This document shows, piece after piece, positions 4,919 through 31,154 of a stretch of 57,637 nucleotides of DNA. The position numbers and the translations under genes were made by a program. The stretch's first letter is position 1. Each line of letters begins with the position of its first letter. The notes under the pieces were generated by a model. The model saw nothing but the letters and a program-made list of their open reading frames with translations, was not told where the DNA came from and made no database searches. This DNA is from Saccharibacillus kuerlensis DSM 22868 (GTDB taxonomy: Bacteria > Bacillota > Bacilli > Paenibacillales > Paenibacillaceae): positions 1-57,637 of the forward strand of contig NZ_KB899300.1 in the NCBI RefSeq assembly GCF_000378145.1. Reading direction: 5' to 3'.

Positions 4919-5023
4919 TTCTTTATTTCAAAATGAGAAAAACTTTTTTTGATGTTTGCTACTTGGACAAAACTTACTTGAATGTAGTTGTAAGAAAAGC
5001 AGGATCCCCTACTGTAGATACAA

Positions 5024-23905: not shown

Positions 23906-25984
<2,079 letters not shown>

Positions 25985-26033: not shown

Positions 26034-26504
26034 CTACCAGCGGTAGTGAGCAAACGCTTTGTTCGCTTCAGCCATTTTGTGCGTGTCTTCGCGTTTCTTC
26101 ACAGATGCGCCTGTATTGTTCGATGCATCGATGATTTCAGCCGCCAGACGCTCTTCCATTGTCTTCTCGCCGCGGTTGCGGGAGTAGTTAACGAGCCAAC
26201 GGAGACCAAGAGCCGTCCGTCTTTCTGGTTTAACTTCGATCGGTACCTGATAGTTGGCACCACCTACACGGCGGGCTTTAACTTCGAGAACCGGCATGAT
26301 GTTCTTGATTGCAGCTTCAAATACTTCCATCGGGTCGTTGCCCGTCCGTTCTTGAATCAACTTGAACGAGTTATACAGGATGTTCTGAGCTACACCGCGT
26401 TTACCGTCGATCATAATGCGGTTGATCAGACGAGTAACCAGTTTGCTGTTGTACACCGGATCCGGCAGTACGTCTCTTTTGGTAACTGGACCTTTGCGTG
26501 GCAT
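26034..26504 (-). CDS. rpsG: 30S ribosomal protein S7
   Basis: A 156-residue S7 protein, the head assembly starter, touching E-site tRNA. Starts [20 protein letters not shown] and contains [20 protein letters not shown]. The ATG follows AGAAAGGGGGATATCC. It sits between rpsL and fusA, 46 bases after rpsL. Confidence 0.98.
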
Positions 26505-26550: not shown

Positions 26551-26973
26551 TTAATTTTTCTTTTCTTTTGGACGCTTAGCGCCGTATTTCGAACGGGCTT
26601 GCATACGTCCGTTTACGCCTGCAGTATCAAGAGCACCGCGAACGATATGGTAACGTACACCCGCCAAGTCCTTTACGCGACCTCCGCGAACCAGCACGAC
26701 GCTGTGTTCTTGCAGGTTGTGTCCGATACCCGGAATGTAAGCAGTCACCTCGATACGGTTCGTCAAACGAACACGGGCATACTTACGAAGCGCGGAGTTC
26801 GGTTTACGTGGAGTCATCGTACCTACACGAGTGCAGACACCGCGTTTTTGCGGGGCGCTCAGGTTTGTTTCCTCACGCTTCAGTGCGTTGAAACCCTTTT
26901 GCAATGCTGGGGATTTCGACTTTACGACTTTCGCTTGACGTCCTTTACGGACGAGTTGGTTAATAGTTGGCAT
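26551..26973 (-). CDS. rpsL: 30S ribosomal protein S12 with streptomycin-site changes
   Basis: A 140-residue S12 decoding-centre protein. It starts [12 protein letters not shown], chosen because GGGGGTGGC fits this ATG better than one two codons earlier. The loop that normally reads TPKKPNS here reads TPRKPNS: Arg56 (codon CGT, 26806-26808) replaces the lysine of E. coli mature Lys42, or B. subtilis Lys56. The second loop KDLPGVRYH reads KDLAGVRYH: Ala104 (codon GCG, 26662-26664) replaces the proline of E. coli Pro90. Both positions are known sites of streptomycin resistance or dependence changes. First gene of the main str operon after the L7Ae-like gene. Confidence 0.97.
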
Positions 26974-27539: not shown

Positions 27540-30500
27540 TTATTCGGTCGTTACAGGTTCCATGGATTCTTCTCCGCTTTCCATGCCTTCCGGATCTTCA
27601 AAACGAATATTGCGATAACGACTCATACCGGTACCGGCAGGAATCAGCTTACCGATCAAGACGTTTTCTTTCAGGCCAAGCAGTTGGTCGACTTTACCTT
27701 TGATCGCTGCGTCGGTAAGGACGCGAGTCGTTTCCTGGAACGATGCGGCCGACAGGAAGGAGTCAGTCTCCAGGGATGCTTTCGTAATACCGAGCAGAAC
27801 CGGTTTGGCTACAGCAGGGTCTTTGCCCTTCAGCATCGCTTCCTTGTTGGCTTTTTCGTACTCATGAAGATCGACGAACGATCCCGGCAGCAGTGTCGTT
27901 TCGCCAGCGTCTACAATGCGGATCTTGCGCAGCATTTGACGAATCATGACTTCGACGTGCTTGTCGTTGATTTCTACGCCCTGGTTCCGATATACGCGCT
28001 GAACTTCCTGAAGGATATAGTTCTGCACGCCGCGGATACCTTTAATGCGCAGCATTTCTTTTGGATCGATCGAACCATCTGTCAGCTCGTCTCCAGCTTC
28101 TACAGTCACACCTTCGCGTACACGCAGACGGGAACCGTAAGTGACCAGATACGTTTTGCTTTCGGCTTCGCCTTGAATTTCAATCTCGCGACGGTCTTTC
28201 GCTTCGCGGATCTCTTTCACGACGCCGTCGATTTCGCTGATCGTGGCTTGACCTTTAGGGTTACGAGCCTCGAACAACTCTTGGATACGCGGCAGACCCT
28301 GCGTGATGTCATCGCCGGCAACGCCGCCGGTGTGGAACGTACGCATAGTAAGCTGTGTTCCTGGTTCGCCGATCGATTGAGCGGCGATGATACCAACCGC
28401 TTCGCCGATCTCGACGTGTTTACCTGTAGCCAGGTTTCGTCCATAGCACTTTTTGCACACACCATGACGGGCGCGGCAGCTGAGTACGGAACGAATTTGC
28501 AGTTTCTCAACGCCGGCTTTGATGATTTCTTCCGCTTTGTCAGAAGTGATCAGCTCATTGCGAGTGGCGATGATTTCTTTGGTTTCCGGATGGCGAACAG
28601 TCTCGAAGCAGTAACGGCCTTCAATACGGTCGTACAGATCTTCGATCACTTCTTTGCCGTCTTGGATACGACTTACCATAAAGCCTTTGTCGGTTCCGCA
28701 GTCGTCTTCGCGCACGATCACGTCTTGAGCCACGTCAACCAGACGACGGGTCAAGTAACCCGAGTCGGCCGTACGCAGGGCGGTATCGGCAAGACCTTTA
28801 CGCGCTCCGTGTGTGGACAGGAAGTACTCGAGGACCGTCAGGCCTTCGCGGAAGTTCGACTTGATTGGGAGTTCGATGATCCGACCGGATGGGTTGGCCA
28901 TCAGACCACGCATACCGCCCAGCTGGGTGATCTGCGATTTGTTACCACGGGCTTTGGAGTCGACCATGAGCATGATGGAGTTGTAACGGTCCATGGATTT
29001 CATCAGAATGTCACTAATTTGATCCTTGGCGTGCGACCAAATTTCGATTACACGGTCATACCGTTCTTCGTTGGTGATCAGACCACGACGGTATTGGTTT
29101 GTAATAACCGCAACCTTCTTGTCCGATTCCTCCATCAGATCTTTCTTCTCAGGCGGTACGACAACATCAGACACGGCTACCGTTACACCCGAACGAGTCG
29201 AGTACGTAAAGCCAAGCTGTTTGATTTCATCGAGGATCATCGAAGTTTGAGTCGTCTGGTAAACCTCGAAGCAGCGTCCGATGATTTCGCCCAGATACTC
29301 TTTACCGATGCCCTTCGTTTGCGGAGCATTGATGATACGATCGGTAACATTTTCACCTTTTTCATAGATGAAGAAGTCTTCCGCCACGCCGTCAAACAAG
29401 TTCGCACGAGTCGCGTCATTGATATACGGGAAGCTTGCCGGGAAAATCTCGTTAAAGATAATCCGACCGACTGTCGTAATCAACATAGCGTCCTGCTGTT
29501 TTTCGGTGAAGCTTGTTTTATTGAGAGCTTTAACCGGAATCGCCACGCGAGCGTGGAGGTCGGCTGTGCCGCGCTGATAAGCGGACACCGCTTCATTGAC
29601 GTTGCGTAAGATCATACCTGCGCCCTTGGCTTGATTGTTGTCCATCGTCAGATAGTAGATTCCGAGAACCATATCCTGCGAAGGAGTAACAACAGGCTTG
29701 CCGTCTTTCGGGTTCAGGATGTTACCGGATGCCAGCATCAGGATACGGGCTTCCGCCTGCGCTTCCGCAGAAAGCGGAACGTGCACGGCCATCTGGTCAC
29801 CGTCGAAGTCGGCGTTGTAAGCCGTACATACGAGTGGATGCAGACGAATCGCTTTACCTTCAACCAAGATCGGTTCGAACGCTTGAATACCGAGACGGTG
29901 AAGCGTAGGGGCACGGTTCAACAGAACCGGATGCTCCTTAATTACTTCTTCGAGAACATCCCAGACTTCGGCGCTTACGCGTTCAACTTTGCGTTTCGCA
30001 CTCTTGATATTATGAGCCAGTCCTTTGTTGACGAGTTCTTTCATTACGAAAGGCTTGAACAGTTCCAACGCCATTTCCTTCGGAAGACCGCATTGGTACA
30101 TCTTCAGGTTCGGACCTACGACGATAACGGAACGACCGGAATAATCGACACGTTTACCGAGAAGGTTCTGACGGAAACGTCCCTGTTTACCTTTAAGCAT
30201 GTGGCTGAGGGATTTGAGTGGACGGTTACCTGGACCTGTGACAGGACGACCACGACGGCCGTTGTCGATCAAGGCATCTACCGCTTCCTGCAGCATACGC
30301 TTCTCGTTCTGAACAATGATATCCGGAGCACCAAGATCAAGCAGTCTTTTCAGACGGTTGTTCCGGTTGATTACGCGGCGATACAGATCATTCAAGTCGG
30401 ACGTTGCAAAACGGCCGCCATCCAGCTGTACCATCGGACGCAGTTCCGGTGGAATAACCGGCAGTACATCGAGGATCATCCAGTCCGGATTGTTACCCGA

Positions 30501-31154
30501 ACTCTTGAACGCTTCGATAACTTCCAGACGTTTGATCGCCCGGCTTCTGCGCTGTCCCTGCGTTGTACGCAGTTCTTCTTTGAGGAACTCAAGTTCCTTG
30601 TCGATATCCATATCCTGAAGGAGCTTCTTCACTGCTTCGGCACCCATGCCCGCATGGAATCCGTAGCCATACTTTTCGCGGTAGCTGCGGTATTCTTTTT
30701 CGGACAGAAGCTGCTTTCTTTCCAGTGGCGTTTCGCCCGGATCGGTTACAACGTAAGAAGCGAAGTAAATGACTTCTTCGAGCGAGCGCGGCGACATGTC
30801 CAGCGCCAGACCCATACGACTCGGGATTCCTTTGAAGTACCAGATGTGGGAAACCGGAGCGGCGAGCTCGATATGGCCCATCCGCTCGCGGCGTACTTTT
30901 GCACGGGTAACTTCAACGCCGCAGCGATCGCAGACGACGCCTTTATAACGAACCCGTTTGTACTTTCCGCAGTGGCATTCCCAGTCTTTGGTCGGTCCGA
31001 AGATCTTTTCGCAGAAAAGACCTTCTTTCTCCGGTTTGAGCGTACGATAGTTGATCGTTTCCGGCTTTTTCACCTCGCCCCGGGACCAAGAACGAATCTT
31101 GTCCGGCGAAGCGAGCCCGATCTTGATAAACTCGAAGTTGTTTACATCCAACAA
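27540..31154 (-). CDS. rpoC: RNA polymerase beta' subunit
   Basis: A 1204-residue subunit. The N-terminal zinc ribbon [20 protein letters not shown], the catalytic [16 protein letters not shown] with its three aspartates, and a second zinc site ([15 protein letters not shown]) are present. The start is TTG TTG GAT, reading [20 protein letters not shown], with GGGAGGGTTGCTCC upstream; B. subtilis RpoC has the same start region. Forty bases after rpoB. No breaks or insertions noticed. Confidence 0.98.

What the first reader, a model, noticed from the sequence alone, without database searches (positions are those of the whole stretch)
26551..26973. Ribosomal protein S12 carries Arg56 and Ala104 at two streptomycin-site positions
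The sequence shows TPRKPNS and KDLAGVRYH, where most bacteria have TPKKPNS and KDLPGVRYH. The first position equals E. coli mature Lys42 (B. subtilis Lys56); Arg there is a classical resistance change. The second equals Pro90, also a site of resistance or dependence changes. The Arg codon is CGT, which cannot arise from AAA or AAG by a single base change, so this looks fixed in the lineage, not a fresh laboratory mutation. I infer natural streptomycin tolerance and altered decoding accuracy.
Basis: partly seen in the sequence, partly recalled or inferred. Interest (0 to 1): 0.7.

Follow-up and report, generated by a model that had tools for sequence, protein, structure and literature searches.

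The report
Natural streptomycin-resistance-type ribosomal protein S12
This bacterium naturally carries two changes in ribosomal protein S12 that in other bacteria can each give streptomycin resistance; the two are found together, never singly, in about a third of the related genomes examined, and may explain patchy natural resistance in that family.

Summary
rpsL lies on the minus strand (26973 to 26551), is the only S12 gene found, and encodes Arg56 (CGT) and Ala104 (GCG), E. coli mature positions 42 and 90. The genome is a Saccharibacillus.

It is not a private oddity. Among 394 genomes of the family, codon patterns for Arg56 and Ala104 hit the same 132. In 141 S12 genes read directly, 58 are R+A, 83 K+P, none mixed. 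Outside the family Arg56 was found in 8 S12 genes, all with Pro104. On an RpoC tree the pair switches at least 9 times; identity profiles suggest that some switches were local replacements of rpsL, so the pair seems to move as one allele, and a single old origin is not rejected.

Both changes are published streptomycin-resistance mutations. A P. taichungensis-like isolate appeared resistant, and a P. amylolyticus strain grows at 5000 ug/mL for an undetermined reason; but two other P. amylolyticus strains are susceptible, so the link is unproved. Natural resistance is the best reading. An effect on decoding accuracy is unsupported: K42R is called non-restrictive in Mycobacterium smegmatis.

The parts
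26551..26973 (-). rpsL, ribosomal protein S12, 140 aa, start ATG at 26973
   Evidence: translation; Pfam PF00164 hit over its cut-off, one place in the genome
26806..26808 (-). codon 56, CGT, Arg (E. coli mature Lys42 site)
26662..26664 (-). codon 104, GCG, Ala (E. coli mature Pro90 site)
26034..26504 (-). rpsG-like ORF, downstream neighbour (name by recognition only)
   Evidence: ORF list
23906..25984 (-). fusA-like ORF (EF-G), used as a control for linkage (name by recognition only)
27540..31154 (-). rpoC-like ORF, used for the tree (name by recognition only)

Best explanation
The gene is the ordinary and only rpsL, in a natural form of the streptomycin-resistance type. Arg56 replaces a lysine at the streptomycin site and Ala104 a proline in a nearby loop of the decoding centre (the proximity is recalled; PMC9456066 names both positions as drug-site residues). 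Together they should stop streptomycin from acting on the 30S subunit while leaving growth near normal. In the family the two residues form a pair that is inherited and exchanged as one rpsL allele, probably by homologous recombination, and is probably kept by exposure to streptomycin-like compounds in soil. Shown: the residues, their complete linkage in the genomes examined, at least 9 switches on an RpoC tree, and one clear local change of identity at rpsL (G109). Inferred: resistance of this strain, the selecting agent, and why Ala104 accompanies Arg56.
For: Same 132 of 394 genomes carry Arg56 and Ala104; 0 mixed in 141 genes read. Control: 0 of 412 variable RpoC columns and 0 of 282 variable EF-G columns separate the two groups, S12 has two. 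K42R and P90A are each published resistance changes. No ANT(6)-type or APH(6)-type hit and RsmG present in the own genome. P. taichungensis DSM 19942 is R+A, and an isolate nearest P. taichungensis appeared streptomycin-resistant. Unexplained growth of a P. amylolyticus strain at 5000 ug/mL.
Against: No phenotype is known for this strain. P. amylolyticus FSL H7-689 and ClWae19 are reported susceptible; their rpsL was not read here. P. polymyxa is reported resistant to a 10 ug disc although P. terrae, a near relative by my recollection, is K+P. The paper on ClWae17B calls it resistant once and speaks of its sensitivity later. The APH(6) search had only a weak positive control. Arg56 occurs with Pro104 in 8 other Bacillota genomes, so Ala104 is not strictly required. 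The S12 double form has never been assayed as far as I found.
Confidence: 0.65

Rival explanations
1. A neutral or mutually compensating alternative: Ala104 offsets the effect of Arg56, so the pair is a lineage variant without meaningful streptomycin resistance.
For: The two residues are fully linked in the family, and two strains named P. amylolyticus are susceptible.
Against: P90A alone is listed as resistant, not as a suppressor; resistant Paenibacillus are reported near R+A P. taichungensis.
Confidence: 0.2
2. An adaptation of decoding accuracy, as proposed for the equivalent Arg in thermophilic archaea, with resistance as a by-product.
For: The equivalent K60R reduces stop-codon readthrough in old flies and raises heat resistance in yeast, worms and flies (PMC8570412).
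Against: K42R is called non-restrictive in M. smegmatis. The archaeal change is described as isolated, while here it comes with Ala104. I have no sign that these bacteria are thermophiles (not tested).
Confidence: 0.1
3. A sequencing error, contamination or a spontaneous laboratory mutation.
For: K42R is a common laboratory resistance mutation.
Against: Identical protein in 10 of 16 genomes of the genus, some of them several percent apart in rpsL DNA, and a three-step CGT codon.
Confidence: 0.01

Closest known systems
Selected rpsL streptomycin-resistance mutants (K42R; P90A in Thermus thermophilus)
   Same: Same residues at the same two positions.
   Different: Those are single changes selected with drug; here both occur together as wild type in many species.
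Arg in place of RPS23 Lys60 in thermophilic and hyperthermophilic archaea (PMC8570412)
   Same: Natural Lys-to-Arg at the equivalent lysine.
   Different: Described there as an isolated change in archaea; here in Bacillota and always with Ala104. That survey covered archaea and eukaryotes, with E. coli as outgroup.
Arg56 with Pro104 S12 of 8 unnamed Bacillota genomes (L291-L296, L298, L361)
   Same: Natural Arg56.
   Different: All 8 keep Pro104; three also differ at E. coli position 87 (L292, L295, L296).

Membership tests
Ribosomal protein uS12 (rpsL) | Matches the S12 family profile, full length | tested here: met
   PF00164 over its cut-off; end-to-end alignment to solved S12 chains
Ribosomal protein uS12 (rpsL) | Lies between rpoC and the rpsG-fusA genes | tested here: met
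   ORF order, names by recognition
rpsL streptomycin-resistance allele (K42R type) | Arg at E. coli mature position 42 | tested here: met
rpsL streptomycin-resistance allele (P90 type) | A resistance-type residue (Ala) at position 90 | tested here: met
   Ala listed as resistant
rpsL streptomycin-resistance allele | Raised streptomycin MIC due to the allele | not testable with these tools
   no measurement for this strain; mixed reports on relatives
rpsL streptomycin-resistance allele | No other streptomycin-resistance cause | tested here: inconclusive
   PF04439 and PF04655 no hit, RsmG present; own 16S not found in the assembly; other modifying enzymes and efflux not searched
Error-restrictive (hyperaccurate) S12 | Reduced misreading | not testable with these tools
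   K42R alone is called non-restrictive; the double form is unmeasured

The most novel reading that the evidence does not exclude
R56+A104 is an alternative, epistatically locked state of the decoding-centre face of S12, kept as an old balanced polymorphism across a bacterial family and passed between lineages by short rpsL replacements under natural streptomycin exposure. It would be the real cause of the unexplained high-level streptomycin resistance of wild Paenibacillus.
Probability: 0.35. Interest if true: 0.7.

Novelty: new variant of a known kind. Interest (0 to 1): 0.5.

Why it matters
S12 position 42 is treated as nearly invariant, and Arg there as a selected mutation or, in the archaeal and eukaryotic survey of PMC8570412, as a trait of thermophilic archaea. 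A bacterial family in which 132 of 394 genomes carry it, each time with Ala104, is a natural experiment: sister species with either allele can be compared for cost, accuracy and resistance. It gives a simple sequence test for a resistance whose cause was guessed to be an efflux pump (PMC12246864). It also warns that rpsL rules built on E. coli or Mycobacterium would call such wild types mutants.

Tried and rejected
Rejected: sequencing error or laboratory mutation. Not claimed: nine independent double mutations, because the S12 DNA tree does not reject one R+A clade and some switches look like rpsL replacement.

Looked for a partner change in 16S: of 36 genomes asked for, 18 had a match and 16 gave full-length copies among the loci kept (28 copies; 10 R+A and 6 K+P genomes); no alignment column separated the types; one copy (L314) lacked the h27 motif searched for and was not pursued; the own genome gave no 16S. 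Looked for a partner in EF-Tu and 15 ribosomal proteins in 20 genomes plus the window: of 757 variable columns one (L6 column 34, 13 rows) separated the types, which I take as chance; S8 and L6 had only 14 and 12 fetched rows. Papers on natural K42R with P90 (0 papers) and on intragenic compensation of K42 (0 papers) were not found.

Rows and parts: 118 of the 148 family genomes (own included), 2 more of the genus and 20 chosen for Arg56 hits were read; G031 was fetched too, lost there by a start motif and recovered as K+P. Of 11 Arg-pattern hits outside the family, 4 are not S12 (L288, L289, L290, L297). In one search, G211 is not S12, and second hits in G221 and G312 were set aside from their letters alone (they encode TPSKPNWA and TPRKPNWA). 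Structure prediction and fold search were not run: a fold model of S12 alone would not show rRNA or drug contacts.

Full report
What is there. Bases 26551-26973 on the minus strand are a complete rpsL; the plus strand there is not S12. The order rpoB, rpoC, a small L7Ae-type ORF, rpsL, rpsG, fusA, tuf is usual (ORFs; names other than S12 by recognition). One S12 place was found in the assembly of 4.70 Mb, 99.91% complete. PDB chain 3j9w_AL (B. subtilis by recollection) aligns without gaps and has Lys56 and Pro104 where this protein has Arg56 and Ala104; these are E. coli mature positions 42 and 90.

Who it is. The protein is identical to those of Saccharibacillus sacchari and S. endophyticus. 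Of 16 genomes of the genus, window included, 10 carry this identical protein and 6 carry K56+P104; G011 and G006 of the ten match the two named records at 100% over the 3.4 kb locus.

How common it is. In 394 genomes of the family a codon pattern for Arg56 hit 133; one (G211) is not S12, leaving 132. A pattern for Ala104 hit 132 of 394, the same genomes, in 5 of 19 genera. No hit does not by itself prove Lys or Pro. Reading S12 directly gave 58 R+A and 82 K+P in 140 genomes and K+P in G031: 141 genes, none mixed. Twenty of these were chosen for their Arg56 hits, so 58 of 141 is not a frequency.

Outside the family. Of 398 genomes sampled in the phylum, 391 are outside the family; 11 had an Arg-pattern hit, of which 7 are S12 genes, all with Pro104, and 4 are not S12. 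The Ala104 pattern hit 0 of these 391 (it asks for KDLAGVRYH and would miss variants). Of 205 genomes sampled in the class, 188 are outside the family; one (G834) had a hit, an S12 with Arg56 and Pro104. So in these samples Arg56 is rare elsewhere and can live with Pro104, and Ala104 was seen only with Arg56. Phyla other than the window's were not sampled.

Is the linkage more than chance? 0 of 412 variable RpoC columns and 0 of 282 variable EF-G columns (a partial EF-G) separate the R+A from the K+P genomes; S12 has two such columns, 56 and 104. Two more S12 columns lean the same way: Lys99 in 47 of 58 R+A and 0 of 82 K+P, Leu74 in 44 of 58 and 0 of 82. The window itself has Arg99 and Ile74.

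How it spread. On a FastTree RpoC tree of 140 genomes the pair changes at least 9 times even when only branches at 95 or more are trusted, and in 9 of 9 independent pairs both sites change (sign test p 0.0039). These need not be nine mutations. The K+P genome G109 is 89-97% identical to its R+A sister G144 in windows outside S12 (85% in one window that is low for the other close relatives too) but 84% in the S12 window, where it is 92% identical to G123, another K+P genome; this looks like replacement of rpsL. G387 and G359, both R+A, are 77-88% identical upstream (lower in a variable spacer) and 92% in S12, but stay at 83-92% downstream, so that case is weaker. For most other switching lineages the nearest S12 DNA of the same type in another genus is no nearer than that of the opposite type, so no recent donor is evident. 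The S12 DNA tree without the two codons needs 6 changes, at least 2 on strong branches, but one R+A clade is not rejected (p-AU 0.716). Arg codons among the 58 are CGT 50, AGG 7 (one genus only) and CGG 1, which fits a second origin or old synonymous drift.

What it should do. PMC9456066 (passages) lists for T. thermophilus K42R and P90A among resistant changes and P90E/M/R/W as dependent. PMC2916820 (part 1 of 3) says K42R gives high-level resistance and is non-restrictive. PMC4224418 (passages) reports P90W and P90L as hyperaccurate, with a structural effect opposite to that of streptomycin; these are not Ala. In the own genome PF04439 (its control rang in B. subtilis) and PF04655 (its control rang only below the cut-off) gave no hit, and RsmG is present without internal stops. 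The own 16S was not found. In 28 copies from 16 relatives no column separates the types, the 530 loop is canonical in all 28 and the h27 motif in 27. If this strain is resistant, S12 is the likeliest cause among those tested.

Phenotypes in print. P. taichungensis DSM 19942 is R+A (L011); its 3.4 kb locus is 98.8% identical to R+A genome G099. ClWae17B, nearest P. taichungensis by genome, appeared streptomycin-resistant by disc, though a later sentence speaks of its sensitivity (PMC11769508, passages). A P. amylolyticus strain grew at up to 5000 ug/mL, and its authors suspected the ykkCD pump (PMC12246864, passages; the same dose is used for selection in PMC12599307, passages). Y5S-7 (P. amylolyticus) and Y5S-9 were isolated on streptomycin-containing agar (PMC11237614, whole text). 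Among milk isolates, P. amylolyticus FSL R5-192 and Paenibacillus sp. R7-269 and R7-277 were streptomycin-resistant; P. amylolyticus FSL H7-689, P. lautus H8-457 and P. glucanolyticus R5-808 were not (PMC3902026, passages). Against my reading: FSL H7-689 and ClWae19 are P. amylolyticus and susceptible, and P. lutrae, P. chitinolyticus and P. polymyxa are all reported resistant to streptomycin discs (PMC6955709, passages) although P. terrae, which I recall as near P. polymyxa, is K+P. I read no rpsL of P. amylolyticus, P. polymyxa, P. lautus or P. glucanolyticus under those names, and that P. amylolyticus is close to P. taichungensis is my recollection.

Is it new? Listings for K56R (9 papers), Paenibacillus with rpsL, Saccharibacillus with streptomycin and P90A/P91A/P104A showed no title or abstract start that reports this allele; most of those papers were not opened, and the library lacks most subscription journals. 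PMC8570412 (passages and section 8) says that Arg at the equivalent site is present only in hyperthermophilic (elsewhere: thermophilic and hyperthermophilic) archaea; its survey ran from archaea to eukaryotes with E. coli as outgroup.

Verdict. A real, natural pair of streptomycin-site residues shared by part of a family: known residue changes in a natural, coupled form that I did not find described. Resistance is likely and unmeasured in this strain; an accuracy effect is unsupported.

Noticed in passing
L295 and L296 (unnamed Bacillota, one family code): S12 reads GGAVPDLPG: besides Arg56 it lacks the usual Arg and Lys at E. coli positions 85 and 87, Lys87 being another classical streptomycin site.
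   Followed up: no
L292 (unnamed Bacillota): S12 with Arg56 and Arg in place of Lys at E. coli position 87 (GGRVRDLPG).
   Followed up: no
S12 columns 74 and 99 in 140 family genomes: Leu74 and Lys99 occur only in R+A genomes (44 and 47 of 58), so the allele may include more than two residues; the window has neither.
   Followed up: partly
L183 (G109), rpsL and flanks: Identity to its sister genome drops at rpsL only, as after replacement of a short segment of a highly conserved gene.
   Followed up: partly
L314 (one 16S copy of G359): The h27 motif matched in the other 27 copies was not matched here; G359 also has low-scoring 16S copies.
   Followed up: no
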